From the IMG/VR virus record IMGVR_UViG_3300040801_003693, positions 1-64,000 of that record: a stretch of DNA of 64,000 nucleotides; one strand, 5' to 3'. The translations under genes were made by a program, and so were the position numbers. The notes below the pieces were generated by a model. The model was not told the DNA's origin. It ran no database searches and saw only the letters and a list, made by a program, of their open reading frames with translations. Within the stretch, counting starts at the first letter, position 1, and the number at the start of each line of letters is the position of its first letter. Of the stretch, positions 126 through 64,000 are shown piece after piece. This stretch comes from a virus.

Positions 126-608
126 TTAAATCAGAAATTTTTTTGATAAATTAAAGTATTCTATGGTTTCTTTCATACTTACGCTTCTTGTCCTTAATAC
201 TTTATTAACCTTATCTCTGTTAATTTTATTGTCTTTAGTCTGATGCTTATTTATTACCTCACTTAATTTTGAATCAATATAATGTTTGTCGCCGAAAGTT
301 ACACAAAATTTATTCTCTATTATTTTAAATCTAGTAATAAACCGTATTAGATTTAATTGATTTATTCCCTCCTTAAAGATTTTACTAATACTTAATTTTT
401 CTTTATGATCCGTATAAACTTTATAAAATTGTATAGAATAGGGTTTACCAGAAATTAAAAAAGAACTTTGATCATCTTGAGTTTTACAAGTATAAAAAAA
501 GTTTATATCGTAAATTAAAGTCCTATCCGTTTTGTTACATAATTCTTTTCCTTCATTATTCAGATGTAAATATAGAAAATCATCCAAAGAAAATTCTTTA
601 TAATTCAT
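126..608 (-). CDS. hypothetical protein, last gene of the VWA/RecA operon
   Basis: A 160-residue, lysine-rich soluble protein with no signal peptide, membrane segment or family motif that I recognise. Its ATG lies inside the end of the upstream gene (11-base overlap with 598-1071), so the two are probably translationally coupled. It is the last of a co-directional run starting near 6237 (nuclease, RecA, MoxR, VWA). Position alone suggests a link to that module. Confidence 0.75.
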   Translation of the reverse strand: MNYKEFSLDDFLYLHLNNEGKELCNKTDRTLIYDINFFYTCKTQDDQSSFLISGKPYSIQFYKVYTDHKEKLSISKIFKEGINQLNLIRFITRFKIIENKFCVTFGDKHYIDSKLSEVINKHQTKDNKINRDKVNKVLRTRSVSMKETIEYFNLSKKFLI

Positions 609-1071
609 TTAACACTGCTCTGTACTTATTTATTCTACTTAGTAACTTAGTAAAAGGTATCTCTCTTATATCTTTTTCCACATCTATATAAAAATGTTTT
701 TCTAAATAAAATATTCCTCTCGGTTTTCTTTTCCCTTCAACTATTTGAAATGGAGAGTTATTATATACAATATTAGGATATTCTATGCTAAATTCTAATT
801 GCTCAAATAAAATTAATACTTCCCAAGAATCTTTATTCTTTAAATCATTTATGATTACTTTAGATACGATGTCATTAAGAAGTTGCGAATACTTTTCATT
901 CAACTTTTTTCCTAAGCTAACTCCTGTAGAATTCATTTGTAGATAGCCTGGATTAGGATAAAGGTCAAAATCCAGGTTAAAGTTTAATTTTAAAAGGCTA
1001 ATTTGTGATTCATCTATTGAATACAAGAATAAAGTTACAGCCTCAACTAGGTGAGTTTTTATTTCAGACAA
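598..1071 (-). CDS. hypothetical protein, TTG start
   Basis: A 157-residue protein with no recognised motif. The start is TTG at 1071, supported by a GGAG Shine-Dalgarno about 7 bases upstream that lies inside the end of the metallopeptidase/VWA gene; the overlap is 13 bases. Gene order and overlaps indicate co-translation with the VWA protein. The function is unknown. Confidence 0.7.
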   Translation of the reverse strand: MSEIKTHLVEAVTLFLYSIDESQISLLKLNFNLDFDLYPNPGYLQMNSTGVSLGKKLNEKYSQLLNDIVSKVIINDLKNKDSWEVLILFEQLEFSIEYPNIVYNNSPFQIVEGKRKPRGIFYLEKHFYIDVEKDIREIPFTKLLSRINKYRAVLNEL

Positions 1072-2279
1072 ATAATCTCTCCAGTTTTTTTATATTCATC
1101 GTTTGAATTATAATACTTTATGTCTTCTGTCATCACCCATAAAATTTTACTCCTTGATTCTTCAGGATAAATTCCAAATCCATCTGTAAAATAAACAATT
1201 AATTTACAGTCTTTGTTTAATTCTTTTACAGCAGGTCTGAAGTCAGTTCCTCCTCCTCCTTTCGGCGGGTATTTAGTTGAGATATTCTTTTTAAAACTTT
1301 CTTTAGCCGGAATATTATATATACTTAATACCTCTGCATCACTATACACTAATTTAATAAAAGGTCTAACGCTTTTTTGGATTTTATCTATCTGGGTAAT
1401 AAACTGAGATAAGATTTTACTATCAATAGAACCTGACGTATCTATGACTACTCCTATTTTTGAAATAACTTCTTCTTTCCTTGTCCCAGGAAGAAAAGTT
1501 TTTCCATATAAATCTCCCATTCTCTTACTTGGTCTTTCATAATTACAAATAATTTTGCTTGAACTAACTTCTCCCTTGATTTTTCTTTTTAATAACTGTT
1601 TCCAATCTATTTTTACAGATTCTTTATCTATATCAAAATCTTTAAATATATTTTTAGTTTTTTCATCTGACATCAACTTCCCAAACAATTCAGAATTGTC
1701 TTGATTAATTACGTCCCGTAAATTATTAGGAATATCTTCTTCTTTAAAATACTTATGTGATTCATTCTCCAGAATAATATCCCCTTTTAGAACATCTTTT
1801 TGTTCTTCTCCCTCACCTTCTTTTTTTACAGGGTAATTTTCTTCTTTTAAATATTGGTATAACTTCTCAACATTATATCCTTTTAAAGAGTATATAGTAT
1901 TAAAAAGATTTTCATTTAAAGTTGCCAAATTCATACTACATTTTGGTAGAGTATATCTGATTCCCTTTAAAATTATTTCATTAATAATTACATCGGCAGC
2001 TATATTCCATAATTCCTGCTCCCTTTCCTTTTTTAACTTTCTTGTACAGTGCTGAAGAGCTATGTGCAAAGCTTCATGAATGAGGATTGCTCTTCTTTCT
2101 GTACTTTCAAATTTAAAATATTCTTCACCTACAAAAATAATTTTTCCATTTGTAGCTGCTATTGGAATTTCATTTGTAATTACAATTGGAACCCATAAAA
2201 ACACTGAACTAAATCCTTGATAACTACTAATTATATCAATCTTATCTCTTTGAATTACTTTCTTTTTTCCTGTTAACAT
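1059..2279 (-). CDS. metallopeptidase-like/VWA protein (DUF2201 type), MoxR partner
   Basis: A 406-residue protein with the two-part architecture of the DUF2201 family. The N-terminal putative metallopeptidase region has HEALH at about residues 68-72, followed by a helix rich in Asn, Ile and Ala. An acidic, low-complexity linker (about 150-200) leads to a C-terminal VWA-like domain whose MIDAS motif DTSGS is at about 280-284, with a later TDGFG. In cellular homologues this protein pairs with a MoxR AAA ATPase, and here that ATPase is the adjacent upstream gene (2356-3456). The pair probably acts as a metal-dependent chaperone or remodelling complex. The substrate is unknown and protease activity is unproven. 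Confidence 0.85.
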   Translation of the reverse strand: MLTGKKKVIQRDKIDIISSYQGFSSVFLWVPIVITNEIPIAATNGKIIFVGEEYFKFESTERRAILIHEALHIALQHCTRKLKKEREQELWNIAADVIINEIILKGIRYTLPKCSMNLATLNENLFNTIYSLKGYNVEKLYQYLKEENYPVKKEGEGEEQKDVLKGDIILENESHKYFKEEDIPNNLRDVINQDNSELFGKLMSDEKTKNIFKDFDIDKESVKIDWKQLLKRKIKGEVSSSKIICNYERPSKRMGDLYGKTFLPGTRKEEVISKIGVVIDTSGSIDSKILSQFITQIDKIQKSVRPFIKLVYSDAEVLSIYNIPAKESFKKNISTKYPPKGGGGTDFRPAVKELNKDCKLIVYFTDGFGIYPEESRSKILWVMTEDIKYYNSNDEYKKTGEIICLK

Positions 2280-2355
2280 TTTTTTACTCTGAGTATGTTT
2301 GTGAATAATTTGAAAAGGGAACTACACACATTACAAAAATTCGGCAAAAATATTT

Positions 2356-3456
2356 TTATTGTTCTGACATCTTTAAGTATTTTTGATAGGACTCATTATC
2401 AAAAATACTACCCATTAAACTTAACTTCTTTGGACCTTCCATATTTTTATATTTATTTAACAACATAGATATTCCTAATGTAGTTATTTCCAAACCTTGT
2501 TCGTGTTCCGATTCTCCAATAGCTACCATAATATCTATTACAGCTTCTAAGTTTTCTTCCTCATTAACAAAGTTAACCAAACGATACACAAGACCATAAA
2601 GACCATAAATACTTTTAATACTATTGATAATACCAAGTCTTTTTTTTGAATTGCTTTGAAATAAGACCGTTATATCAGGAGTTTCTTTTAGTTCCTGAAG
2701 AGTATGCACAAATTCGGCGTAGGCTATTTTACCTATCCTACCTCTAATCAAATCTTCAAGTAAAGAAAAGTCGTTTGGATTATCATTACTGTTCAGAAAA
2801 TCAGAAACAGTTTTCCATGACCGGGGAGAAGGAATAATAGTAGATGTGTCCTCTTCTTTTGACTCGACTATTGAACCCTGTGAATCTAAGAACTCTGGCT
2901 TTAATTTTATAAAAGTTAATACTGCTTCATGCAGCTTATTTTTACTAGCCCATTTCAGCCAAGTTTCTACAGAGGAGTCAACAAGGATATGAGTAAATCT
3001 ATCTTTGAGTGCTGCTCCCATCTCAAACAAGTTGTCTAGGTCTTCATTGTAATTTCCGGCTGCTATTACTAACCAGTCTTTTGGAAGAATATAATCGCCA
3101 ATTCTTCGATCTAGAATTAATTGAAATGCAGCCGTTTGTAATCTTTGGTCTGCGTGGGGTAGTTCGTCTAAAAATAGAATTCCCTGACCTTCTGTTGGGA
3201 GAAAATCTGGGGTAAGCCAAGTAGTTGTATGTTGCTCATGATTAAAGAAAGGTAGTCCTTTTAAATCTTCTGGTGCCATTTGACTTAAACGAACATCAAT
3301 TAATTCTATCTTTTGATTTTTGCAAAACTCTTTTACGATTGTAGATTTACCAATACCAGGATTGCCCCAAATAATAGCTGGCTCTTTAGTCTTATATAAA
3401 ATAGGGATAAGCTGCTGTAACTTTTCTGTATTGATTGGATTAGTATTAATTTCCAT
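2356..3456 (-). CDS. MoxR-family AAA+ ATPase
   Basis: A 366-residue AAA+ ATPase. Walker A GNPGIGKST is at residues 31-39, Walker B ILFLDELPHAD at about 93-103, and sensor-1-like AAGNYNED follows. The arrangement matches MoxR ATPases that partner VWA proteins: ATP hydrolysis drives remodelling of a client presented by the VWA subunit. The VWA/metallopeptidase partner is the next gene downstream (77-base gap). The N-terminus is ordinary, and the serine-rich loop SPRSW near residue 212 comes from a GC-rich CCGGGGAG patch, one of the dispersed palindromes. The cellular target in phage infection is unknown. Confidence 0.88.
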   Translation of the reverse strand: MEINTNPINTEKLQQLIPILYKTKEPAIIWGNPGIGKSTIVKEFCKNQKIELIDVRLSQMAPEDLKGLPFFNHEQHTTTWLTPDFLPTEGQGILFLDELPHADQRLQTAAFQLILDRRIGDYILPKDWLVIAAGNYNEDLDNLFEMGAALKDRFTHILVDSSVETWLKWASKNKLHEAVLTFIKLKPEFLDSQGSIVESKEEDTSTIIPSPRSWKTVSDFLNSNDNPNDFSLLEDLIRGRIGKIAYAEFVHTLQELKETPDITVLFQSNSKKRLGIINSIKSIYGLYGLVYRLVNFVNEEENLEAVIDIMVAIGESEHEQGLEITTLGISMLLNKYKNMEGPKKLSLMGSIFDNESYQKYLKMSEQ

Positions 3457-3489
3457 ATTGTTCTCTTGTGTTTAGTGTTTAGATTGAAT

Positions 3490-3990
3490 TTAGATCCACA
3501 TTTTGTTTAGGCTGTATAGCAACCAATACAAAGTCTCTTCTTTGAAATCTTCGTCTACTTTTCCTTTTTTTATTTCTTCTAACTCTTTAATTATCCCTGT
3601 TGTTGCGGGGGATAATCTTAATGTATCTTCAAATAAAAAGTCATCTTCTTGCTTTTGTAAGAATTGGTTTCCACATTTTAAGTTATTGATTACATAGTTT
3701 TCACTATCTAACCTTGTATAATTGAATAACTTTTTGATTGTTATTCTTTTCTTGATAGTTTCCATTTGATCGGTTTCTAACGGATACCTTCCTATTTCTT
3801 CTTTGTACTTTTCATAACTCTCAACAGGATATACTAATTGTGACAACTGAGCATATTCCTGCGTTGCTCTTTCAAACTTTAGATAGCTAGAATGTTTCTT
3901 GTCGATTTGAAACACTACTCTTATCTGATATATTTCTTGTTTTTTATCACAAGCGTAAATCAAAGTTTTAATCTTACTGCTATTGCTCAT
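3490..3990 (-). CDS. hypothetical protein between RecA block and MoxR
   Basis: A 166-residue soluble protein, rich in Lys, Glu and Tyr, with no motif that I can name. It starts at the ATG just below a strong hairpin (4002-4053), so it probably heads a separate transcript with the MoxR and VWA genes; the gap to MoxR is 33 bases. Its C-terminus ends in a Trp-rich helix. A link to the MoxR/VWA module is inferred from position only. Confidence 0.7.
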   Translation of the reverse strand: MSNSSKIKTLIYACDKKQEIYQIRVVFQIDKKHSSYLKFERATQEYAQLSQLVYPVESYEKYKEEIGRYPLETDQMETIKKRITIKKLFNYTRLDSENYVINNLKCGNQFLQKQEDDFLFEDTLRLSPATTGIIKELEEIKKGKVDEDFKEETLYWLLYSLNKMWI

Positions 3991-4433: not shown

Positions 4434-5436
4434 AATATTTCATTTCCTCTTTTAATTTTGTTAATACTTCTGGATTATTTTCTAACTCTGCTTTTAAGGA
4501 TTGCTCCCCTTGAACTTTTAGATTTTGATATTCGTACCAAGCACCTTTCTTTATAATAATCTCTTTCCTTATCCCCTGGCGAATAATATCTTTTAATATA
4601 TCTATCCCTGCTATCTGAGTCCCATCCTCTGCTGTATAAGGAAATAATATATCTATCTCCGCCGTAGCAAAAGGAATAGCACATTTATTCTTTACTGTTT
4701 TTAATGTACTAACTATTCCTATTTCTTTCCCCGCTTCTTTAATCACCTGCTTACTAATTCTAATAATTACGCTAGACCAATACTTCAATGCGTTCCCTCC
4801 TGTCGGTGATTCAGAAGGTCCGTACATTTGCATTGTCGCTCTCACTTGATTAATTAACACTATAGTACATTTGTTTCTATCTGCATGAACTGCTAATTCC
4901 GGAAGTATTTTTGATAAGTACCTAGCAATTATTGCCATAGTAGATTCATCTACTTTCTTTTCTTGAGTCTCTTTTGGTAATAATCCAGAGATAGAGTCTA
5001 ACACTATTAAATCTACTACTTCCGACTTAACTAAATCTCTAATCGCCTCTAAAGACTCCTCTGCACTACTTGGCTTCAATAACATTAAGTTGTTTACATC
5101 CACTCCGCACATTGAAGCAAACTTCGTATCGTAAGCAGCCTCTGAATCAATCAGCGCACAAATCTTTCCTTGCTCTTGCAATGACTTTATAAACTGAGTG
5201 CTAATTAAAGATTTTCCACTACTCTCTGGTCCATACATTTGTACTATCCTACCCTCTGGTAGTCCTCCACCCAGCATATAATCAATTGAGAAGCATCCTG
5301 TAGAAATAAATCTAATGCTTGCTGGAGTGCTGTTATTATTATTTATTCCATAATAATTATCTCCATACTTTTTTACCATCAAGCTTTCTAACTTTTTTAA
5401 TTTAGAAGCTATGTCTGAATTGTTTTCTTCACTCAT
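4426..5436 (-). CDS. recA: RecA recombinase
   Basis: A 336-residue RecA/RadA-class strand-exchange ATPase. Walker A GPESSGKS is at residues 69-76 and Walker B VDLIVLDSISGL at about 139-150. Loop regions include VINQVRATMQMYG-like sequence (here VLINQVRATM) and GGNALKYWSS. It coats single-stranded DNA and drives homologous pairing in replication and repair. Its length is close to bacterial RecA without a long acidic tail. The start ATG overlaps the stop of the upstream gene as ATGA, which also shows that UGA works as a stop in this genome. A nuclease-like gene lies two genes upstream. Confidence 0.93.
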   Translation of the reverse strand: MSEENNSDIASKLKKLESLMVKKYGDNYYGINNNNSTPASIRFISTGCFSIDYMLGGGLPEGRIVQMYGPESSGKSLISTQFIKSLQEQGKICALIDSEAAYDTKFASMCGVDVNNLMLLKPSSAEESLEAIRDLVKSEVVDLIVLDSISGLLPKETQEKKVDESTMAIIARYLSKILPELAVHADRNKCTIVLINQVRATMQMYGPSESPTGGNALKYWSSVIIRISKQVIKEAGKEIGIVSTLKTVKNKCAIPFATAEIDILFPYTAEDGTQIAGIDILKDIIRQGIRKEIIIKKGAWYEYQNLKVQGEQSLKAELENNPEVLTKLKEEMKYYG

Positions 5437-6687: not shown

Positions 6688-6918
6688 TTACCACTCTTCA
6701 TCTATTACTCCTACATATATTGCTACACTTTTATTATGCAGAGATATTGAATTTGTAAATAACTTCATTCCCGGCTCTACTGAAGTTTTAATCCTAATCT
6801 TCTCGTCTGGATTCAAATTCATTTTGTTTATCTCTTCTATGTCAGAATATATTTTTAAAGGATGATTATAAATATTAACTATTTCAAACTCATAATACTT
6901 CTCAAAGTTGGATTCCAT
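6688..6918 (-). CDS. small beta-rich hypothetical protein
   Basis: A 76-residue protein, predicted mostly beta from alternating hydrophobics, with EPGMKLF in mid-sequence. Its start overlaps the end of the upstream gene by 17 bases, so the two are probably co-translated. No family recognised. Confidence 0.6.
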   Translation of the reverse strand: MESNFEKYYEFEIVNIYNHPLKIYSDIEEINKMNLNPDEKIRIKTSVEPGMKLFTNSISLHNKSVAIYVGVIDEEW

Positions 6919-13838: not shown

Positions 13839-16220
13839 TTACCTAATTGGACAAGCACCTGTAGAACAGGATGGATCTGTTGGTTCGTATTGTTCGTATT
13901 CTGTCTCTGTTTCAAATTTAGCTATTAGTTGTAACAATGCTTCTTTATTCAACCGAGGATTCTTTTTAACTAACTCTTGATAATCTTCTTCTGAACACGT
14001 TTCAAACGGCATATTTGGATAAGGACTATCGCTAGAATCAAATCTAGGTAAGAAAGAAATTCCTACTACATAATCCCAGTTTTTATATACCCACTCTGTA
14101 ACTTTTTCCCATTCATTAGGAGATACAGATACGGTTATACTACAATTATGATCCACATAGTTTTCCATCATTATTTTATAGCGTTCCAACTGCGAGATAG
14201 CACTTTCATCAATGCTTTTAAAAGCGGCTGTAGTTTTTACTGGAAATGTAAATACCCAAGTATCGCATTCAGGAGCGTGTAAATTATCTCCTTGATTATT
14301 TTCGGGTACGGGGGTGTAGCCCATTTCTAATAATGCTTTAGCAATAGGATCATATTTATTAATTCTAATTCTGCGCTTATAAAAAGGTGCATAAGGTGCA
14401 TGAATACCACTACTAACAGAAGGAAGGTTAGAAATTGTGCCCTCTGGTTTAATAGTAGTAATTAATAAAGCTTTATTAATACCCATCTCTTCATGATACT
14501 TGTCAGCCTCTTCTCTCATTAATTTTCTAGTTGTAGAGAGAGTAGTTGTAATAGGCGTAGTATTGTAATCTACAATAAACTGTGGTTCCTTTTCTGAAAT
14601 AGAAGTATCCACACGAATCTTGTCCCAGCCTAATAAATTAATTGCATCAACAATTCCTGTAATAGAAACTCCTAATAACCTATCTTTCTTCTGAGTTTTA
14701 TCCCAACTCTTTTTGAACATATCTAGGTTTGTGATTCTAGAACACATTCTTACTGCTAATCTTGCTGCTTTTTGGAATCCTATGTAATCAAATTCTCCCC
14801 CCGGCGTAACAAACTTTGGTAAAGGAATTGTGACCAAGTTACAGGTTTGTTCTGACCTTAAGAGTATCTCCGCACACGGATTCAATCCTTCATAGAAAGG
14901 TCTACGCTTACTTGCAGCTTCTTTATTTACAAATCCTGGTTCGCCATTGTTCTTAATGCTTTCAAAGATTTCTTTAAGCTTTTCAAGACTAGGCTTTTGT
15001 TGGAAGTGTACGGAGTTATTTGACATTGTACGTGACGATCGCAAATGTGCTTTGCTTTCATCAGTGTATAAATCTAACTTAGCATTGATAAAATCATCAT
15101 CAATAATATCACCGAGGCTTAATAATGAACTGCGACGGACTCCTCCGCTGACAACGCCTTCGGCGATAAAGTTAGCAATATCCATTGCTTGTACGGAACT
15201 TAACCTACAAAAATCAGGTTTAGAAATTATTGATAGTTTGTTTAAAGCTTTCTCAATCCTTCCTAAACTTGATTCTTTTTTGTCACCCACAATGGTATTA
15301 TGAATCTTCTCAAACATTCTTTGTAAAGATTCAGGTCCGGAAGCTCTACCTCCAAAACCTTTGATTCTTTCTCCTTTAGGACGAACGTTATCGTACACAA
15401 AAGTAATTTCTTCAACATGGCGATCGCAATGTAAATACAGGTATAACTTTAGTGCGTTTACCCATCCTGTTTTGGAATCACCGATATTAATTGTTACTCT
15501 AATTCTCGAAGGTTGCAATCTAATATCATTCCAAAGCTGTCTGATAAAGGGTAATTTAGAGCCTAATTTTTTAACTCCTTTTGTGCAGTCTAAAATATTG
15601 CAGCATTTAGCATTGTTATCTTTGAGAAATTCTTCCCCAACTACAATGGAGCTTGTCTCGTCAAAAGAAATAGTTGTATGCTCATCTCTAACTTGCTTAG
15701 GTAAGGAATCATAAGGCTTATGATGAACTTTTAATGCTCTGTTGAACCAAGGAAGAGAGTTAATGTGCTTATTCTCTACACTAAACCCAACTCCAACGCC
15801 CAGCAATAACGCATAAAATATATCAACAAAAGCTTCAATACCATCAATAGTTCTAAAACTACAGTTAAATTGAGCTAAGCCATCTACTGCGGGAACTCCA
15901 CCAACCCATAAAGTTCTACCGCTAGGAAAAACCTTTTGATTAAACATATAATCATATAGTTCTTCTGCTTCTTGTTTTAATTCATAAAAAGAAGCATCTC
16001 CTTTATATAACGACATAGAGTATTCAACTACTCTACAAACTGTTTCTGCCCAGGTTTCCCTCCTCCGGAGAGAAGGAATATAGCGACTATAAGTACGCAA
16101 ATATACTATATAACCTAAGTCACTACCAAATGGTGCATCTTTTTCTAAATAGGGTTGTAAGAAAGAAGCATTTAAGTATTTAGGATCAATAATTTCAGCA
16201 ATGTAATCAAGATTTGACAT
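13839..16220 (-). CDS. nrdJ: class II (adenosylcobalamin-dependent) ribonucleoside-triphosphate reductase
   Basis: A 793-residue monomeric class II reductase. It converts NTPs to dNTPs through a thiyl radical formed with adenosylcobalamin. Active-site cysteines fit the Lactobacillus enzyme spacing: NPCAEILLRSEQTCNL places C449 and C460 eleven apart (like C408/C419). An earlier cysteine lies in FNCSFR, and the C-terminal redox pair is in SCSTGACPIR. Also seen are GGVRRSSLLSLGD and TIKPEGTISNLPSVSSGIH. The gene is full length for the monomeric family. A cobalamin adenosyltransferase-like gene lies immediately upstream. The host or medium must still provide the corrinoid. Confidence 0.92.
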   Translation of the reverse strand: MSNLDYIAEIIDPKYLNASFLQPYLEKDAPFGSDLGYIVYLRTYSRYIPSLRRRETWAETVCRVVEYSMSLYKGDASFYELKQEAEELYDYMFNQKVFPSGRTLWVGGVPAVDGLAQFNCSFRTIDGIEAFVDIFYALLLGVGVGFSVENKHINSLPWFNRALKVHHKPYDSLPKQVRDEHTTISFDETSSIVVGEEFLKDNNAKCCNILDCTKGVKKLGSKLPFIRQLWNDIRLQPSRIRVTINIGDSKTGWVNALKLYLYLHCDRHVEEITFVYDNVRPKGERIKGFGGRASGPESLQRMFEKIHNTIVGDKKESSLGRIEKALNKLSIISKPDFCRLSSVQAMDIANFIAEGVVSGGVRRSSLLSLGDIIDDDFINAKLDLYTDESKAHLRSSRTMSNNSVHFQQKPSLEKLKEIFESIKNNGEPGFVNKEAASKRRPFYEGLNPCAEILLRSEQTCNLVTIPLPKFVTPGGEFDYIGFQKAARLAVRMCSRITNLDMFKKSWDKTQKKDRLLGVSITGIVDAINLLGWDKIRVDTSISEKEPQFIVDYNTTPITTTLSTTRKLMREEADKYHEEMGINKALLITTIKPEGTISNLPSVSSGIHAPYAPFYKRRIRINKYDPIAKALLEMGYTPVPENNQGDNLHAPECDTWVFTFPVKTTAAFKSIDESAISQLERYKIMMENYVDHNCSITVSVSPNEWEKVTEWVYKNWDYVVGISFLPRFDSSDSPYPNMPFETCSEEDYQELVKKNPRLNKEALLQLIAKFETETEYEQYEPTDPSCSTGACPIR

Positions 16221-54653: not shown

Positions 54654-54926
54654 ATGATATATTTATCGATTATTGATAATTTAAATTGTGAGGTATTGTC
54701 TACTGTAAATCCAATATTAGAGGAGTTGGATAATAGTAATATACAGTCAATAGAATTAGAAGAGTGGAAAGTGATATTAAAATTATTAGAAGAGGATGAA
54801 GAAACGAATAGAGAAACAGCAGCGGCGATTGTTTCTGATTTAATTAGAAACCAATTGGATAGATTTACCTGTGTAATTAATAATAGTGTTCCTTCAGATT
54901 TACCGGATGCATTCAATGAATATTAA
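54654..54926 (+). CDS. hypothetical virion-operon protein
   Basis: A 90-residue acidic protein (IQSIELEEWKVILKLLEED). It starts right after the previous stop. Its end overlaps the next gene. Unrecognised. Confidence 0.65.
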   Translation: MIYLSIIDNLNCEVLSTVNPILEELDNSNIQSIELEEWKVILKLLEEDEETNRETAAAIVSDLIRNQLDRFTCVINNSVPSDLPDAFNEY

Positions 54927-55284
54927 TTTAGAGGATTATAAAATATCCTATGAGGTGACAGTATTGCCCAACGTATTATATGCAGAATTAGTAAATGCAA
55001 AAACTCCTTTAGTGTTTGATAGTTTTTATATTCCAGAAGAGTTAAAAAATTTTGCGCTTGAATGTAGATTTATTCTTTACGACAAAGATGGAGGATGTGT
55101 AGAGTTTTCTAACAACATTACTTTGGAACAGCAAATAGTTTACACGTTAAATTTAGTTCCATTAAAGATGATACATAAATTATGTTCTTCAGTTAAAAAT
55201 CAATATTCAAAAGAATATCCTGTAATTGCGGGGTCTGATTCAATAGCAGATTCTTCTACGCTATCTTCTAATGATTCAACATAA
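54916..55284 (+). CDS. hypothetical protein overlapping the giant gene antisense
   Basis: A 122-residue protein from ATG 54916 (MNINLEDYK); ATG 54907 is an alternative and the further GTG 54886 is unlikely. The body is beta-rich (FILYDKDGGCVEFSN). The last 28 residues (SKEYPVIAGSDSIADSS) are Ser-rich and lie over the minus-strand giant gene: the two stops overlap tail to tail by 85 bases. Confidence 0.6.
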   Translation: MNINLEDYKISYEVTVLPNVLYAELVNAKTPLVFDSFYIPEELKNFALECRFILYDKDGGCVEFSNNITLEQQIVYTLNLVPLKMIHKLCSSVKNQYSKEYPVIAGSDSIADSSTLSSNDST

Positions 55285-58200
55285 AGTGCTTGTTGAGTAG
55301 CACTACTGATTTCTTCATCTCCGGAGAAAGTAGAATAAGTAATATACTGAGTCATTCCATCTTCAGCGTACACTGCAACATCATCAACTGTATTCTGTTC
55401 ATCTGTTTGTCTTACTTCTCTAATATAATTTTCAGCGTGTTGTAAAGTAGTTTCTAATATAGAAGGTTGAGGGGAATCAACTATAAAGTTTTGTATTTGT
55501 TGACCAACCATCATTCCTAATATAGTAGATGCAATTGCACCAACTCCAGTGCTAATTATTCCTCTCATATTATTATATTTATCCATATCCAAAGACATCT
55601 TTGCCTGACCGAAAGGTGTCATTTTATTCATGAGTACATTACTAAAATATTCAGTACCGAACATACCGATAGCACTCATAGTCATTTCTCGTGCAGCTAA
55701 ACCTGCAATTGCCTTACCCGTATCACCATCACTATTAGCGATCGCCATTCTTGCTTTAAAAGCAGTACCGGATGCAACTTGAGCTACACCCCCAGCACCT
55801 TTGCTCATACCTTTGGTACCTAGCATATAAGATTTAACGTGCATAGCAGAACTAATAGAGTTACCCATTACCTGTTGGAATGCCTCTGGGTTAACTTCAC
55901 CAGAAGCCAGAGCCTGACCTGCCATAATAAGTGCGGGTAAGAAAACTAATTCAGCAGCGAGATCGGCGTTTCTTGTTCCGGCTAATTTACCAAAAGCAGA
56001 TTTAGAAGCTTTAGTATTTAGTCGAGGATTATGTCTTGTCGAATATCCTTGTTGAGATTCTTGAATAATTTGACGAGTTACTTCTTCCATTACATCTATA
56101 TCGGGGTCTGCAACACCTGCTGCTACTTTAGTTTGAATTTGTCTCTGAACTACATTTTTAGCTTCTTCTTGAGATAGTCCCATTGCAGTTAAATTCTTTA
56201 CCATACCTTCGGCAGTATAGGTTTTAGAAGGATTAAGATTATTAGTACCTTCATAGATTTTCATTACAGAGTTTGCCATTGCTCCAAACTGAGTAGAGTT
56301 TAATCTACTCATAATTAGTTCGCTTGAGCCTTCAGCAGATTGAATAAGCTGTTTGTAAAATTCCATTAGCTGCATTTTATCAGGGGCATTACTTAATCCT
56401 CCTTGCTCCATTAATTTTAAAAGTAATTCATCCGGTTGTAACTGATGGTTATTATCTTTACTTTTAAAAGTGGCTAACATAGAATTCATAAAATATGCCA
56501 TTGACTGAGGGGAAATCTTTCCTGCTGTTGCAAGCTGTACGTAAGCAGCACTTGTAGGGTCTTGAGAAATATCCATTGTAGAACTTTCCCCTTTAGAACC
56601 AGAACTCAGTTTACTTCTTACTTGATTGTAATTAGCAAACTCTACTAATTTCTCTCCTTTCTCCCCGGCAAAAGTTTCAATTGATTGCTTCATCTGAACG
56701 TACTGATGAGCGTGAAGCAATTTATCTTCTGTTGATATTTTACTGTAATGTTCTATTACATCTTTTCCTACTAAGCTTTTAAAACTTTCATAATATTCTT
56801 GCTGCTCGATGCTTAAGGTATCAAAGTAGTTTTTATCTCTAACAACTTCTTCCATACCTTGAACTAAATAATCTAATTTAGATTTTTCCTGTACCAATTC
56901 TGGACTATTTAAGTTCTTCATCAACATACTTTGCAAAGTTCTGCCTGTTGATTCTGCACTGTTCCAAGCTTTATTTTCTGCATCATAAGAAAGTTCTTGA
57001 CCTCTAGCTTTCTCAAATGCAAATGCTGTAGCTAAATTTAATAAATCTTGTTTAGTTTTATAAGATGCAACCAATGCCATTTTATTTACGTTCATTTCAT
57101 TGATTGGTTTATAATCAGAAGATACTGCGGTTTTAATACTAGTTGCAATTTCTCCTTGTTCATCTACAAATCCCAATCTTTTCATATAGTGTTTTTCTAC
57201 ATTGGAATCAGATATATTAATTTCAAATCTTCCCAAAACTTCTGCTTGAGCATTCTTATTCTTTTCATCTGTATATTCTGTCTTTAAAGTTTGTACTGTA
57301 TTAACTAATTTATCTAACTGCACTAAAGATTTTAATCCTGTACCAGGACCAAACTTACCTACAATTAAATCGATTATTCTTTCTCTATCTTCATCACTAT
57401 CTGCATTACGATAAGATTCAATGTCTTTATTAATTTCATTTAAAAATTCAACAGAATCTTTTGGCTTAATCGAATCTCGCATTAACTGATTTATAATTTG
57501 TAAGAATCCACCCATTTGCATAGAACGGGCACGTCCGGATTCAGCAGACTTCATCATATCAGTATAAGCATCCTCTCCCATATTTGCTTTTACCATATCT
57601 CCAATCTTCCCATCTGTATCGTTTTCCAATAAAAATGACAATGCTAAAAAAGGAGATTCAGTATATAACAAAGAAGCCATACTATTATACGTCTTGCCTA
57701 AAATCACAGAACCAGCTTGACCTAAAGTCTTGAGCATCATCTCCCACTGATCTGTATTTACTGCCGTACCCGCAGTACCTCTAGATTGATATTTAGATAA
57801 CTGTTCCCCAGCAGAAGTTGTAGAAAATATTCTTGTAACGTAGTCAGTAATACCTTCCTCTCCGGAGGAGACAGCCTGTTGTAAATCGGTTCTAATTTGC
57901 TCTCTATATTCAGGAGTAGATTCTAATAGTGATTTAGCAAAAGTGTTTTGTGGATCTTGTCCAATCAGCATTGTTTTAAATGCTTCATCATTCATTAAGG
58001 CTTCTTTATCTTGAGCAATACTAGTTACTGCTTGATGTAAAGGACGAATGTTATTAATAACATCTTCCATCCCTCCAAATAATCCTCTACCTTGCTCAAT
58101 TAAAGTAAACAGTGTTCCAGTATCCATACCTCCTAAAATCTTCTCATCTACTTTAAGATAATTGGAAACGTACTTGACGCTAGCCTTTCTCATCTCTTGC

Positions 58201-61200
58201 ATTGATGTAGATTTATTAGCTAGCTCTACTGAATGCTTTAAGTCATCTCTTTGCTGTACTAATCTAGAAATTTTAGTATCGGTCTTTTCTAATTCAGCTT
58301 GCATTATAGCTAGCTTTTCTGGATCTGTAGTTTGGGGTAGTCTCTGTTCTATTTTAGATTTACTTATTTCGTAGCGAGCAATTAATTGATTTGTTTGCTC
58401 TACTCTCAACTCAGTAGTTTTCATGTTACTAATAATTGCAGATACCGAGTCCCCATCAAAGTCTCCTCCTTGAGATTGATAAGGTCCTATTGGATTAATC
58501 ATTCCTAATGTCTGGTTTCTTTTACCAGAGAATCTAATTGATACCCCCATCTCTTCTAAAGAATTATCTAAATCTTCTAAATTAAAAACATTGTATTGAG
58601 TAAGTTTATTAATCTCAAAGTTTCCTAAAGGAGGAGATCTCCACATTTGAGTCTGTGATAAGTTTAAATTAGTAAAAGTATGAGTAATTAATGATTCTAA
58701 TCTTTGATTAATAGTTTTTAAATCTATCGGAGTAGCACTAGGGTTTAAATCTGTTTCTAACTGTGATACTCTACTATTAAACTTTTCAATATGAGAATTC
58801 ATTTGACTCTTCTTAAAAAAGTCTCCGTAATCTGCTTCTAATCTTTCTACATAATCTGATACTATCTTCTTAGTACTAGCAATTTTTGATTGAATAGTAT
58901 TCGCATCAATGTTAACTCTGTCTTGATGCATTTGATTTAAAAGCTTTGTAGTACCTTTTCTTAACTCCCCTTCTAGAGAACTAACTCTAAGTTTGGGAAC
59001 AAATGTATTACTACTTCCTAATTGCAATCCTTCTATTACAGTAGGAGTTTGTCTAAAATATCTTTCTTGAGAAGTAATATTTTTTAAAGTCTTTTTACTT
59101 AATACTTCATCTTTATTATTTCTAAATATAAACTCCTTCCCTGGAGAATTCATACTATTAACAGCCATGCTTTGCAACAAATGCATTTCGGATACTGCTG
59201 TTAGTCTTACATAGTAATCACCCTCTGCACTGTTAGCATTCCTTTTTAAACCTTGATAGTATTCAATTCTTTGTTCAATATCAGAAGCAATTTTCATTAA
59301 ATCAGAATCGTTTTCCGCACTTTGTATTCTAGATACTAAATGTTTTGATTCACTGACTAAAGTATTTAAATCGTAAGTACCTACTGGAGAAATACCTTGG
59401 TGTAACATTTTATATTGAGATTCAATCAACTTTCTTTCTGTTGAAATCCTACCTTTACGTCTTATTAAATTCTTACGTTGAGCTTCCAACTCTGGACTAA
59501 TTGAATTACCTCTAGCTAATCTTTCAACAGTTGATTCAGGAGTTTCTCCCACTGTTTTATTTGGACTTATATCTTCTAATTGTTTTGCAATGTTGTTTAG
59601 ATTCTTATCTACTTTTTTAATTCTTTTATCTAGTACTGCGATCGCCTTTAATCTATCTTCCGCTGCGGCTCCTCCAAACTTATTGAACAAAGCTTCGGGA
59701 CCAATTAGTGCTTTTTCTGGAACAAACAAAGAGGCAGCGGCTGTAAAAGTACTACCATCTAATCCTACTCTGGCACCAAATTGAGTTTGGAATCTAGAAT
59801 TAATTAATTCTGATTGAACTTCAATTGGAAAGTTAAGTGCTGTTTCTTGAAATGTTTCAATCTTCTTAGCCATATCTGAAGCAATCTCAAACTCTCCCGT
59901 TTCACTATCACTTAAATAAATTTTGTCTAATACTTGGTCTACATCACTACGAGCAGCTAATCCTTCCCACAATACTAATTGAGACTTAACTGTTTCTGCT
60001 ACAAATTCTCCATATTGATCCCCTAACACTTTAAGGTCATCAGGAGCTAGCGTAAAACTAGTAATAGTTCTCTTCTTATCAAACTTTACTTTATTACCTT
60101 CTACTACTAAATGCGGAAAAGAAAACGCCATGCGACTAGCACCAGTTACCTGCATTCCTTTAATTACCGCCTGGGAGTGAGATATATCTCCTAACTTGTT
60201 TTCTAACAATTTATACTGGGTAGAAATGTCTTCTAATTCACCCATTGTAGTTGAGAGTCCGATACTAACTGTAGCTTGTATTTGTCCTAACGTTGCTCCA
60301 CTTTTAATCTGAGTTATTAAAGACTTTGCATATTCACTATCTCTTGCAGCTATTAAAGATTTGTTTTTAGTATCTCCTTCTAATATTGTCAGCAGCATTT
60401 CTTTTTCTGAAGAGGAATATCTAAACCCAGCAGCAGAAGTAATCTCTTTTAATGTAGAGAATAAAGAGTACTTTCCTTTATATACTTTAAAATCTTGAGC
60501 AGTAATTACACCACTATCATAAAATCCGATAAACTGACTTTTAAAATAAGAACTTCTAGCAGTACTGCTAATTAAATCTACTGCTTCTAAATTATTAGTT
60601 GCAGCAATAAATTGAGTTTGAGAACCACCATATATAGAGCCAAGTACACTAGACAATACATTTCTTAATGCAGGTACGTTTCCTTTACTTAATGCTCCCG
60701 CTTGCGTACTGTATTCCTCTCCTACTAAATGTTGTGCTTCTAAATAAGCTTTGTTTCTAGAAGACATTGATACTTTAGATTGAGAACCAGCAGTAGAAGA
60801 AAACATACCTACTACTCTAGAATAATTAGCAATTCTATTTAAAATAGAACGAGCTTCTTTTCTCTTCTCTTCATTATCTAAATTATTTATATCTTCCCCG
60901 GCGATAAAAGCTAATTTGTTTAAAGTTACATCATCATCTAAGTTAGCTGCTTCAACTGCAATCTGGTCGGCTCCCATTAACTGTAAGGTTAAATCTATTC
61001 CTCCAGCAAGCATTCCTAATTCTCTACCACGACCAGAACTATCTAAATTTAAATAGCCATTTTTGATTATGTCTCCAGTAGGGTCACTGAGTAAATTACT
61101 GACTTTAGATTTTAATCTAACATCTGCTCCTCTTACTCCCGCTAAAGTATCGGCAATATCCTGCATTGATATGTAACCTAAAGTGCGAATGTTAATGTCA

Positions 61201-61760
61201 CTTACATCCGACTTCATTGAATTTATTAGCTGCTCTGCTATATCTATATCTGTAGGGTTTGTGCTGTCCCCCATTTTAGTTGTTAATGTTTTTAACTTAT
61301 ACATATCTGATAAATAGTTACCTAAACCAGCACCTGCTGATAGTCGGGTTAATTCACTTAATGCAGCTTGCTTTCCAGTTTGGTCAAACATCTCCGTACC
61401 AAAACTAAGCATTAAAGATGCAGCTAAAGTTTTACTATCGTTGTTTAGCAAAGCATCTTTATATATTTGTCTACCCCCTTTTGTATAACTTAATATTTGA
61501 GCGCCATGCTCAAACATATAAGATTTAAAGTTAGAAGGGTTTGCTACTCCTTGAATTTGTTCTATACCAATACTGCTACCGAGGAAAGCACCTTTTGAAT
61601 TACGGTTCCATGATTGAGCTATATCTCTAATAAAAGTTCCGTAGGCATAAATAGGAACACCTTTAAATAAACCACCCGCTTGAGATTCATTTCTTCCCCC
61701 TGCATAATTTACTTTTGTTCTGTCATAATTAATTTCTACTAAAATTTCATTCGACTGCAT
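55200..61760 (-). CDS. giant DFDGD-motif protein, candidate virion RNA polymerase
   Basis: A 2186-residue protein with GGDFDGDSVSAII at residues 1098-1110 (DFDGD 1100-1104, bases 58449-58463). GKRNQTLGMINPIGPYQSQ just before it fits the catalytic-barrel context of RNA polymerase beta'-type subunits, in which the three Asp bind Mg. The length and the single-polypeptide layout resemble the giant RNA polymerases of crAss-like phages (gp66 type), which are packaged and injected. Repetitive helical flanks are rich in Lys, Glu, Gln and Ser, and hydrophobic helices near 1980-2140 (AIASTILGMMVGQQI) may be membrane-active. The frame continues upstream without a stop to UGA 61896, so ATG 61760 may not be the real start. 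Confidence 0.65.
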   Translation of the reverse strand: MQSNEILVEINYDRTKVNYAGGRNESQAGGLFKGVPIYAYGTFIRDIAQSWNRNSKGAFLGSSIGIEQIQGVANPSNFKSYMFEHGAQILSYTKGGRQIYKDALLNNDSKTLAASLMLSFGTEMFDQTGKQAALSELTRLSAGAGLGNYLSDMYKLKTLTTKMGDSTNPTDIDIAEQLINSMKSDVSDINIRTLGYISMQDIADTLAGVRGADVRLKSKVSNLLSDPTGDIIKNGYLNLDSSGRGRELGMLAGGIDLTLQLMGADQIAVEAANLDDDVTLNKLAFIAGEDINNLDNEEKRKEARSILNRIANYSRVVGMFSSTAGSQSKVSMSSRNKAYLEAQHLVGEEYSTQAGALSKGNVPALRNVLSSVLGSIYGGSQTQFIAATNNLEAVDLISSTARSSYFKSQFIGFYDSGVITAQDFKVYKGKYSLFSTLKEITSAAGFRYSSSEKEMLLTILEGDTKNKSLIAARDSEYAKSLITQIKSGATLGQIQATVSIGLSTTMGELEDISTQYKLLENKLGDISHSQAVIKGMQVTGASRMAFSFPHLVVEGNKVKFDKKRTITSFTLAPDDLKVLGDQYGEFVAETVKSQLVLWEGLAARSDVDQVLDKIYLSDSETGEFEIASDMAKKIETFQETALNFPIEVQSELINSRFQTQFGARVGLDGSTFTAAASLFVPEKALIGPEALFNKFGGAAAEDRLKAIAVLDKRIKKVDKNLNNIAKQLEDISPNKTVGETPESTVERLARGNSISPELEAQRKNLIRRKGRISTERKLIESQYKMLHQGISPVGTYDLNTLVSESKHLVSRIQSAENDSDLMKIASDIEQRIEYYQGLKRNANSAEGDYYVRLTAVSEMHLLQSMAVNSMNSPGKEFIFRNNKDEVLSKKTLKNITSQERYFRQTPTVIEGLQLGSSNTFVPKLRVSSLEGELRKGTTKLLNQMHQDRVNIDANTIQSKIASTKKIVSDYVERLEADYGDFFKKSQMNSHIEKFNSRVSQLETDLNPSATPIDLKTINQRLESLITHTFTNLNLSQTQMWRSPPLGNFEINKLTQYNVFNLEDLDNSLEEMGVSIRFSGKRNQTLGMINPIGPYQSQGGDFDGDSVSAIISNMKTTELRVEQTNQLIARYEISKSKIEQRLPQTTDPEKLAIMQAELEKTDTKISRLVQQRDDLKHSVELANKSTSMQEMRKASVKYVSNYLKVDEKILGGMDTGTLFTLIEQGRGLFGGMEDVINNIRPLHQAVTSIAQDKEALMNDEAFKTMLIGQDPQNTFAKSLLESTPEYREQIRTDLQQAVSSGEEGITDYVTRIFSTTSAGEQLSKYQSRGTAGTAVNTDQWEMMLKTLGQAGSVILGKTYNSMASLLYTESPFLALSFLLENDTDGKIGDMVKANMGEDAYTDMMKSAESGRARSMQMGGFLQIINQLMRDSIKPKDSVEFLNEINKDIESYRNADSDEDRERIIDLIVGKFGPGTGLKSLVQLDKLVNTVQTLKTEYTDEKNKNAQAEVLGRFEINISDSNVEKHYMKRLGFVDEQGEIATSIKTAVSSDYKPINEMNVNKMALVASYKTKQDLLNLATAFAFEKARGQELSYDAENKAWNSAESTGRTLQSMLMKNLNSPELVQEKSKLDYLVQGMEEVVRDKNYFDTLSIEQQEYYESFKSLVGKDVIEHYSKISTEDKLLHAHQYVQMKQSIETFAGEKGEKLVEFANYNQVRSKLSSGSKGESSTMDISQDPTSAAYVQLATAGKISPQSMAYFMNSMLATFKSKDNNHQLQPDELLLKLMEQGGLSNAPDKMQLMEFYKQLIQSAEGSSELIMSRLNSTQFGAMANSVMKIYEGTNNLNPSKTYTAEGMVKNLTAMGLSQEEAKNVVQRQIQTKVAAGVADPDIDVMEEVTRQIIQESQQGYSTRHNPRLNTKASKSAFGKLAGTRNADLAAELVFLPALIMAGQALASGEVNPEAFQQVMGNSISSAMHVKSYMLGTKGMSKGAGGVAQVASGTAFKARMAIANSDGDTGKAIAGLAAREMTMSAIGMFGTEYFSNVLMNKMTPFGQAKMSLDMDKYNNMRGIISTGVGAIASTILGMMVGQQIQNFIVDSPQPSILETTLQHAENYIREVRQTDEQNTVDDVAVYAEDGMTQYITYSTFSGDEEISSATQQALYVESLEDSVEESAIESDPAITGYSFEY

Positions 61761-61898
61761 ATTAGCACCGAGTATTCTAACATCTCTTAGTACTTCTTTT
61801 GCATCTTCAAAGTAAAATGATGCAGCATTACTAGTTGCAGTACCTGTAGTAAAAGAAGGTTTAGACTGAACCTTTTCTATTAAGTTACTTGCTACTCA
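61761..61898 (-). other. in-frame UGA joining two halves of the giant gene
   Basis: The upstream frame ends in UGA (61896-61898). The same frame is open for the next 45 codons, reading VASNLIEKVQSKPSFTTG, continuing FYFEDAKEVLRDVRILGAN, and running into the ATG at 61760. The peptide is protein-like and no canonical start lies between. The two genes are therefore one reading frame with a single stop, either a readthrough site, a nonsense change or a decayed junction. Confidence 0.7.
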
Positions 61899-64000
61899 AA
61901 ACTGGTTACGAGAATCTACTACTCTATCTTTTATATAATCTCCCGCAGCTTCATTCCATTTATATACCCAAGTTTTATTATCACTGCTATCAAACTGTAT
62001 TATCTCTCCGGAGGAGGCAAGTATGTTTTTAATAGCACTCCAGCTATCTACTCCTAATGCTTGTTGTAAATCGTCAGTAGATACTGTTGCTCTAAGTTTA
62101 CTGCCCTGATAACCTTTAACTGCACGATCTACAAAACCCTGTCGCATTCCACTGGAACCTCCGAATTCAGGGTTTGCATAATAGTAATCACTGTAAGCAC
62201 CTTCTAACTGCATCAGCATTACAGAAGGACCATAGCGTTGAGAAGAACCTAAGAATCCTCTTACGGCAGAAGCATGAGTATCTATACTTAATAATGTAGC
62301 TCTAAGTAATTCTGCTCCTACACCGTCATAGGTATCTTCTTCTCTAATTCCAAATTCAGTTGCTACTTGTTTTCTGATTGCTTCTAATTCTAAGGATAAC
62401 TCCGCACTTAATACAGGTGCTATCCTATCTGCATATAATGCACCTAAAGAATATTTAGTAAAGTTGAAATTATTTCTATATCCATCTGCTAATCCACCTT
62501 GAATATCTTTAACGTATAATTGTCTTAATTGATCTACAGTTTTAACCGTAGTTGTCTGACCCACGTTAGAAAATCTATTTGTATAAACCCCACTAAAATT
62601 ATCAACAATATCTTGATAACTTTGAGATAAATCTCTTAAAGGTCTAGAACCAATTACGTTTTTAATTCTTTGTGGAATTTGAGATGCTTTCTTTTTTTGG
62701 TCAAAGTAGAATTGCATTACAATTCCATCTTCTCCAGATAAGCTTTCCAACTGTTCTCTATAATCATCTGTTGTTTGTCTAGCAAAGTCGTCTCCTAAAA
62801 AAGCAATAGTTTTAAAATAACTCTCTGCTTCTTCTACTCTTAATATTGCTCCTACGTGAGCATCCTCTATAATTTTTAAAGAGGTAACATCTCCTGTTTT
62901 CTCATGCTTGTGATAAGGAAGCATATTATTTAAACCAAACTTAATACCTTCAAAATAATTTGATGTTTCTCTACTACCACCTCCTTCTGCAACTGCCATA
63001 TAAAGCAATTCACCCGTACCCAAATCTGAAGTAGCTCCAAAAGAAGCGGGAGTATTCATTAATGCAAATTTATTTAACGCTCCTACTCCTTCATATCCCG
63101 CTGTATTAATTACGTTAACAGTATCGTATCTTCTATCGTTAACTCCATATGCAGGTCTTTTTCTTCTTGCTTGCATTTTAGAATAAGTATTTGCCTGCCC
63201 GTATAACAAGAACGATTCAAACTTCTCTGTAGATAAATTCTTAATCGTTTTATTTAAATCTCTATTATATAAATAATCTTTTTGAGCAGAAACAAAATCA
63301 AATCTTACGTCTGCAAATGTATCGTCATCTCTACTCAATAATGTATTTAATCTGCCAATAATAGAATCTTCTGCCGATAAGTTAGCACCACCTAATAATA
63401 ATGCTTTACGAATGTCTACGTTATCCGTAGAAGCATAAGCTTTTATCTTATTAGTAATCTCTAATAATTCTGATAATCTACTTGTGTCCCCCGGCTTGAC
63501 ATTAGTTAAATTACGAATAGTTTGAGAAACATCTCCACTATCTTGTTTGTACTTAGCTTCAAACTGTGCTAATCCTAACAGCACTCTTTCTTTATCTATA
63601 CTAAGTAAACTGTTAATGTCTCCTGTAGAATCAAATATTCTATTTAAGTAATTAACGCTACCTGTAATTAAATTGTCATAGCTTTCCGTATTGACAGTGC
63701 TGTATCGTGTTACAAATTCATTCTTAGGAAATCTTACCAAGTTTAAATTAGCAGATTCAGATGCAACAGAAGCGATTAAAGATAGCGTGCTTTCTATAGG
63801 AGATAATGTTTCTCTTTGTCCTCTTCTAATTAAAACTTTATTTCCATTACGTTCAAAACCAGTAGCTATATCGCTGTTGGACATATTTACAAATTCTGTT
63901 TCACTGATTAATTTAGATTTGTTTATCTCTAATACAAAACCTTCACCTGCTCCAGAACCTGAAGATAAAGTTGTAAATTTATATTTTAATTGACTACCTC
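61896..64000 (-). CDS. upstream half of the giant reading frame, incomplete at window edge
   Basis: At least 701 codons, open to the right edge; the ATG at 63884 is internal-looking because the frame before it (LSSGSGAGEGFVLEINKSK) is also protein-like. Helical and Ser/Asp-rich with no motif I can name (YLNRIFDSTGDINSLLS). Near its end SSGEIIQFDSS is encoded over a dispersed palindrome (62003). It shares its frame with the DFDGD protein across a single UGA, so together they would make a protein of more than 2,900 residues. Confidence 0.65.
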   Translation of the reverse strand, partial: GSQLKYKFTTLSSGSGAGEGFVLEINKSKLISETEFVNMSNSDIATGFERNGNKVLIRRGQRETLSPIESTLSLIASVASESANLNLVRFPKNEFVTRYSTVNTESYDNLITGSVNYLNRIFDSTGDINSLLSIDKERVLLGLAQFEAKYKQDSGDVSQTIRNLTNVKPGDTSRLSELLEITNKIKAYASTDNVDIRKALLLGGANLSAEDSIIGRLNTLLSRDDDTFADVRFDFVSAQKDYLYNRDLNKTIKNLSTEKFESFLLYGQANTYSKMQARRKRPAYGVNDRRYDTVNVINTAGYEGVGALNKFALMNTPASFGATSDLGTGELLYMAVAEGGGSRETSNYFEGIKFGLNNMLPYHKHEKTGDVTSLKIIEDAHVGAILRVEEAESYFKTIAFLGDDFARQTTDDYREQLESLSGEDGIVMQFYFDQKKKASQIPQRIKNVIGSRPLRDLSQSYQDIVDNFSGVYTNRFSNVGQTTTVKTVDQLRQLYVKDIQGGLADGYRNNFNFTKYSLGALYADRIAPVLSAELSLELEAIRKQVATEFGIREEDTYDGVGAELLRATLLSIDTHASAVRGFLGSSQRYGPSVMLMQLEGAYSDYYYANPEFGGSSGMRQGFVDRAVKGYQGSKLRATVSTDDLQQALGVDSWSAIKNILASSGEIIQFDSSDNKTWVYKWNEAAGDYIKDRVVDSRNQF

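What the first reader, a model, noticed from the sequence alone, without database searches (positions are those of the whole stretch)
55200..64000. One giant reading frame split by a single UGA
The frame of the DFDGD protein runs upstream through 45 protein-like codons with no usable start, meets one UGA at 61896-61898, and continues open to the window edge. UGA is a normal stop elsewhere (ATGA overlaps at 5433 and 25229), so the code is not changed. Stop readthrough would make a fused protein of over 2,900 residues; otherwise the polymerase is expressed from an unusual start or the genome carries a nonsense change.
Basis: partly seen in the sequence, partly recalled or inferred. Interest (0 to 1): 0.85.

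Follow-up and report, generated by a model that had tools for sequence, protein, structure and literature searches.

The report
Stray stop in giant cyanophage protein
A phage related to viruses of bloom-forming cyanobacteria carries one stop codon in the middle of a giant gene that is unbroken in nearly all of its relatives; the stop is most likely a sequence error or a chance mutation, but the gene itself encodes a 3,700-residue protein without a single cysteine that looks like an unrecognised RNA polymerase carried in the virus particle.

Summary
On the minus strand one frame runs from an ATG at base 66299 of the 135,938-base record (outside the window) to a stop at 55200: 3,698 sense codons and exactly one in-frame UGA, at 61898-61896. 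It is one gene, homologous to Microcystis phage Ma-LMM01 gp080 (3,562 aa; PHROG 31006, function unknown). Sixteen of 17 relatives are unbroken; L029 is broken elsewhere by a 76-base assembly-type difference. At the UGA position all relatives have a sense codon for a variable residue (R, P, T, S, A, D, G), inside an ungapped, well-conserved block. No suppressor tRNA, shared stop, RNA-structure signal, intron, intein or usable restart was found. A changed code is excluded: the gene's own terminal stop is UGA. Best explanation: a single nonsense base (assembly consensus, minor variant or very recent mutation). Leaky readthrough remains possible. The protein is more interesting: counted from the first plausible start, 12 family members (47,863 residues) contain no cysteine, like the N4 virion RNA polymerase, and all that cover it carry an invariant R..P.G / RN..L / D(F/Y)DGD signature. 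The polymerase assignment rests on that motif; sequence and fold searches neither confirm nor exclude it.

The parts
61896..64000 (-). Upstream part of the giant gene as far as the window shows it; it continues to its ATG at record base 66299 (1,467 codons in all before the UGA)
   Evidence: Open frame and ATG start; collinear with Ma-LMM01 gp080
61896..61898 (-). The single in-frame UGA (codon 1468 of 3,699)
   Evidence: Read directly; all 17 relatives have a sense codon at this column
61899..61916 (-). Conserved DSRxQ(F) block just before the UGA
   Evidence: Gap-free alignment to L008 and L009 across the site
61761..61895 (-). 45 codons between the UGA and the first ATG; coding-like and conserved (25/45 identical to L008)
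61758..61760 (-). First in-frame ATG after the UGA; no Shine-Dalgarno, Met not conserved: unlikely start
55200..61895 (-). Downstream part of the giant gene, 2,231 codons, ending in TGA
   Evidence: homology to Ma-LMM01 gp080 and PHROG 31006
58623..58640 (-). Invariant R..P.G element upstream of the DFDGD motif
   Evidence: Alignment A4 of 10 relatives
58449..58463 (-). DFDGD motif (fused residues 2613-2617), candidate metal-binding loop of a two-barrel RNA polymerase
   Evidence: D, D, G, D invariant in 10 of 10 aligned relatives

Best explanation
The feature is one gene, not two, and not a designed readthrough cassette. It encodes a 3,699-codon, cysteine-free giant protein of the Ma-LMM01 gp080 family; by inference a protein carried in the virion and injected with the DNA, with a candidate RNA polymerase active site (DFDGD). 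The UGA at codon 1468 is a single nonsense base that this contig alone carries: an error or minor variant captured in the assembly consensus, or a very recent mutation in the sampled phage. It has no regulatory role. Shown here: frame, homology, uniqueness and variability of the site, intact frames in relatives, absence of cysteine. Inferred: origin of the base, virion location, injection, polymerase activity.
For: Sixteen of 17 relatives have one unbroken frame; the 17th (L029) is broken elsewhere by a 76-base difference from an otherwise identical contig, so assembly-type lesions do occur in this gene. At the UGA column relatives have R, P, T, S, A, D or G, always a sense codon. The site lies in the most conserved 150-codon block against L008 (59%), not at a domain border. 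No tRNA, no structure signal, no Rfam match. There is no other lesion in the 3,699 codons, and both halves are Cys-free, so the stop is recent or not real.
Against: About 35 other genes of the record with homologues show no internal stop, so a generally poor assembly is not the cause. No reads and no second copy of this phage could be examined; the DNA pattern scan of viral contigs found no close relative.
Confidence: 0.65

Rival explanations
1. The UGA is genuine and fixed, and leaky or programmed readthrough by a host tRNA makes a small amount of full-length protein, enough for a virion protein needed in few copies, plus an excess of a 1,467-residue fragment.
For: The frame is perfect on both sides and coding-like directly after the stop; the protein family is a single chain in relatives, so the full-length product is presumably needed.
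Against: The stop is not shared by any relative and the column is variable; no hairpin above shuffles (z -0.59 and +1.96); no Rfam element; no suppressor tRNA in the record.
Confidence: 0.14
2. The UGA is genuine and the protein is now made as two chains: 1,467 residues, and a second chain restarted at an internal codon, for example the ATG at 61760; the chains assemble into the working protein.
For: A first ATG lies 45 codons downstream; split RNA polymerase chains exist in other phages (established knowledge).
Against: No Shine-Dalgarno at any of the first 13 in-frame candidate starts in the first 400 codons, Met46 not conserved; the cut falls inside a conserved block, not a linker.
Confidence: 0.09
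3. The gene is being lost: a real nonsense mutation has inactivated it in this phage.
For: A single inactivating change is how decay begins.
Against: No second lesion in 3,699 codons; the gene is universal in the relatives found, and no second copy was found in the record by search with relatives' proteins.
Confidence: 0.09
4. The phage reads UGA as an amino acid (changed code), or an intron or intein surrounds the stop.
For: None beyond the open frame.
Against: Only one in-frame UGA in the gene against 9 TGG codons; UGA ends 12 other ORFs and the gene itself; the site is never Trp in relatives; alignment to L008 has no insert; no tRNA genes.
Confidence: 0.01

Closest known systems
Microcystis phage Ma-LMM01 gp080 and orthologues in MaMV-DC and MaMV-DH01 (Fukuivirus; PHROG 31006)
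   Same: Same family over the whole length, same place beside the head genes, same motif, no cysteine after the probable start
   Different: Only about 27% identical; theirs have Arg, not a stop, at the site; annotated only as hypothetical protein
Virion RNA polymerase of phage N4 and N4-like phages (Schitoviridae)
   Same: About 3,500 residues, single chain, no cysteine (0 of 3,500; noted in PMC3715699 and PMC3915230)
   Different: N4 enzyme is of the T7 type and has no DxDxD motif; no homology claimed
Tail-tape-fused virion RNA polymerase gp96 of Thermus phage P23-45
   Same: Giant cysteine-free protein (0 of 5,002) with a DFDGD motif; motif-only discovery later proven by structure and activity (PMC10770324)
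   Different: Profile comparison aligns only 14 residues around DFDGD (E 0.044)
Virion RNA polymerase gp66 of crAss-like phage phi14:2
   Same: Large single chain, DFDID loop, cysteine only at residues 3 and 2179 of 2,180
   Different: No significant profile match
Programmed UGA readthrough (for example phage Qbeta A1 protein; from own knowledge)
   Same: In-frame UGA followed by a long open frame
   Different: The stop is not conserved, lies inside a conserved block and has no detected signal

Membership tests
Ma-LMM01 gp080 family (PHROG 31006) | Collinear homology over nearly the whole length | tested here: met
   BLASTP residues 203-3677 of ours against 175-3540 of gp080, E 0; PHROG 31006 for both halves
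Ma-LMM01 gp080 family (PHROG 31006) | No cysteine after the first plausible start | tested here: met
   0 Cys in 12 members, 47,863 residues
Programmed stop-codon readthrough | Stop codon conserved at the site among relatives | tested here: not met
   17 of 17 relatives have a sense codon
Programmed stop-codon readthrough | Stimulating RNA structure or known element next to the stop | tested here: not met
   z -0.59 and +1.96; no Rfam match; short sequence contexts not assessed
Programmed stop-codon readthrough | Coding sequence continues in frame after the stop | tested here: met
   2,231 codons, homologous throughout
Programmed stop-codon readthrough | Full-length and short products both made | not testable with these tools
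   Needs proteomics or a reporter
UGA-recoded genome | UGA avoided as terminator and frequent inside genes | tested here: not met
   UGA ends 14 of 121 ORFs, including this gene; one internal UGA
Intron or intein at the site | Extra segment relative to homologues around the stop | tested here: not met
   Ungapped alignment with L008 across the site
Two-barrel (double-psi beta-barrel) RNA polymerase | DxDxD catalytic loop conserved in the family | tested here: met
   D, D, G, D invariant in 10 of 10 relatives aligned
Two-barrel (double-psi beta-barrel) RNA polymerase | Significant sequence or profile similarity to a known member | tested here: not met
   hhalign to P23-45 gp96 and phi14:2 gp66, PDB and Pfam searches all without significance; such enzymes are often not detectable by sequence
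Two-barrel (double-psi beta-barrel) RNA polymerase | Two double-psi barrels in the fold | tested here: inconclusive
   AlphaFold2 models with mean pLDDT 55 and 52, not usable
Two-barrel (double-psi beta-barrel) RNA polymerase | RNA synthesis activity | not testable with these tools
   Needs biochemistry
Giant virion-injected RNA polymerase (N4, crAss-like, P23-45 kinds) | Giant single chain without cysteine | tested here: met
   yardsticks N4, P23-45 and phi14:2
Giant virion-injected RNA polymerase (N4, crAss-like, P23-45 kinds) | Present in the virion and injected | not testable with these tools
   No proteome of this group found; MaMV-DH01 paper calls for mass spectrometry

The most novel reading that the evidence does not exclude
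The UGA is real and tolerated: leaky readthrough sets the ratio of a 1,467-residue fragment to a 3,699-residue, cysteine-free virion RNA polymerase in a cyanophage, in a phage group that published accounts say has no polymerase of its own.
Probability: 0.07. Interest if true: 0.8.

Novelty: new member of a known kind. Interest (0 to 1): 0.4.

Why it matters
The stop itself is probably ordinary and should not be cited as recoding. The gene is worth attention. Published work on these Microcystis phages says that they lack RNA polymerase (MaMV-DH01, PMC9927357) or that all Ma-LMM01 transcription relies on the host enzyme (PMC5780444). Yet the largest gene of the Ma-LMM01 group encodes a cysteine-free giant protein with an invariant DFDGD motif. 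If it is a virion RNA polymerase, early transcription in a group of bloom-infecting phages must be rethought, and this can be tested on a cultured phage. The near-total lack of cysteine, shared by three unrelated kinds of virion RNA polymerase, is also a simple sequence mark for finding injected giant proteins.

Tried and rejected
A single-protein scan for close relatives found none, and a DNA pattern over the site found none in the viral contigs. DNA-level searches of phages, near and distant, were empty. A scan of bacterial and archaeal genomes found no relatives. Two AlphaFold2 models were too poor to use; the actin-capping-protein matches of the second are noise (E 0.015, TM 0.06). PDB matches of the profiles were coiled coils and antibody light chains that share DFDGD by chance. 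Long open frames behind four TAA-terminated ORFs (42979, 80028, 81749, 108394) were considered as further broken genes; three end where their Ma-LMM01 homologues end, and the fourth is followed by a separate ORF in the same frame. The apparent stop inside the UvsX alignment (4426) is an overrun of the alignment past the natural end, a TAA... or TAG-type gene end in a low-similarity tail. Rejected: selenocysteine (the site is variable and never Cys in relatives), altered code, intron, intein.

Full report
What is there. The window is bases 1-64000 of a 135,938-base virus record. On the minus strand a single frame starts with ATG at record base 66299 and ends with TGA at 55202-55200; it is interrupted once, by UGA at 61898-61896. 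That gives 1,467 codons, the UGA, then 2,231 codons.

Whose genome. The giant frame, the major head protein, portal, tail sheath, baseplate, UvsX, RIIA, ThyX and others match Microcystis phage Ma-LMM01 and its relatives (genus Fukuivirus), at 22-55% identity to Ma-LMM01. The record is therefore a distant relative of these cyanophages, probably a myovirus (sheath and baseplate genes). The order giant gene, gp081-like gene, portal, major head protein is kept in Ma-LMM01, and parts of it in the stretches held for other relatives.

One gene, not two. Ma-LMM01 gp080 (3,562 aa) aligns to both halves, collinear over residues 203-3677 of ours, and both halves hit PHROG 31006. Scans of viral contigs brought in further relatives. 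Together with the cultured phages, 17 relatives cover the site. Sixteen are one unbroken frame of 3,309-5,409 codons, counting two (L012, L038) that run off the fetched DNA. The exception, L029, is 100% identical to L028 except for a 76-base difference at 6704 that breaks its frame, and another difference upstream: an assembly-type lesion, not a stop at our site. The partial Microcoleus phage gene is open as well but does not cover the site reliably.

The UGA site. It lies in an ungapped block (ours VVDSRNQF-stop-VASNLIEKVQSKPSF, L008 VVDSRKQF-P-LIKDTIEKVVEKPSF). The residue there varies across relatives: Arg in the Ma-LMM01 group, Pro, Thr, Ser, Ala, Asp, Gly elsewhere. The surrounding 150 codons are 59% identical to L008, the highest of all 150-codon blocks of the protein. 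A stop at a variable residue inside a conserved block is what a random nonsense base looks like; a programmed site would be expected to be shared by relatives or to lie at a domain border.

Signals looked for. No tRNA gene, hence no suppressor tRNA, in the record. No unusual RNA structure: z -0.59 for the 99 bases from the UGA onwards, z +1.96 (weaker than shuffles) for 241 bases around it. No Rfam match. UGA ends 12 other ORFs of at least 120 aa and the giant gene itself. The ATG at 61760 has no Shine-Dalgarno, and four relatives have Leu, Val, Asp and Val there. The 45 residues between the UGA and that ATG are 25/45 identical to L008, the same as the 45 before the UGA, so they were part of the protein until very recently or still are.

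Error, mutation or readthrough. About 35 other genes with homologues show no internal stop, so the record is not full of errors. But one wrong or variant base needs no general error rate, and the giant gene is by far the largest target. The remaining frame is perfect, which argues against long decay. I therefore hold a single nonsense base, from consensus error, minor variant or very recent mutation, the most likely (0.65), leaky readthrough 0.14, a split into two chains 0.09, a decaying gene 0.09. These numbers are judgements; reads would settle it.

What the protein is. An unexpected finding is that it has no cysteine at all: 0 in 3,698 codons, where the other ORFs of this record predict about 47 (Poisson probability about 3e-21), while the two other frames of the same strand contain 78 and 187 Cys codons. 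Every relative is the same. The few Cys in annotated or open-frame N-termini (for example Cys21 of gp080) all lie within the first 34 residues and before a later usable start. Counted from the first plausible start, 12 members with 47,863 residues have none. The annotated start of gp080 is therefore probably 24 codons too early. Starts were chosen with this pattern in view, so that part is an inference; the absence of Cys from residue 35 onwards in all of them does not depend on it. N4 virion RNA polymerase (0 of 3,500), P23-45 gp96 (0 of 5,002) and phi14:2 gp66 (2 of 2,180, both at the extreme ends) share the trait. For N4-like phages it was noted and tied to passage through the tail or periplasm (PMC3715699, PMC3915230).

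Polymerase or not. All ten relatives aligned over the region hold R..P.G, RN..L and D(F/Y)DGD within about 60-75 residues, like the DxDxD loop of two-barrel RNA polymerases. P23-45 gp96 was recognised from the same motif and later proven (PMC10770324). But the profile comparison with gp96 aligns only 14 residues (E 0.044), gp66 gives nothing, and PDB and Pfam searches give nothing. Structure models were too poor to judge. I put about 0.65 on a two-barrel virion RNA polymerase. Two papers state that these phages lack or do not use a polymerase of their own (PMC9927357; PMC5780444); the passages I read do not discuss gp080, and my literature searches found no description of it as a polymerase, in a library that lacks most subscription journals.

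Verdict. The gene family deserves follow-up as a candidate new group of giant virion RNA polymerases.

Noticed in passing
55200-64000 and homologues L006, L008-L016, L031, L036, L038: Total absence of cysteine in a family of 3,400-5,400-residue proteins; every Cys near the N-terminus lies before a later usable start, so the annotated start of Ma-LMM01 gp080 (before Met25) is probably wrong.
   Followed up: yes
L024:17618-26314 (Ma-LMM01 gp120): A second giant Ma-LMM01 protein (2,898 aa, hypothetical) also has no cysteine; no homologue was found in this record.
   Followed up: no
L029:6704 against L028:6628: Two contigs of one phage, 100% identical otherwise, differ by 76 bases inside the giant gene; the difference breaks the frame in L029.
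   Followed up: partly
L002:9536-11092 and Ma-LMM01 gp083: Annotated as tail protein in Ma-LMM01, but the homologue here matches the portal protein family phrog_113 (E 4e-22).
   Followed up: no
13839-16220: Ribonucleotide reductase with B12-dependent (class II) Pfam domains, whereas Ma-LMM01 carries separate nrdA and nrdB genes.
   Followed up: no
whole record: ARAGORN finds no tRNA gene in the record, while Ma-LMM01 is annotated with tRNA-Met and tRNA-Tyr.
   Followed up: no
54886-55284: A plus-strand ORF (132 aa, GTG start) overlaps the 3' end of the giant gene by about 85 bases, a convergent overlap; Ma-LMM01 gp079/gp080 overlap by 17 bases at the same place.
   Followed up: no
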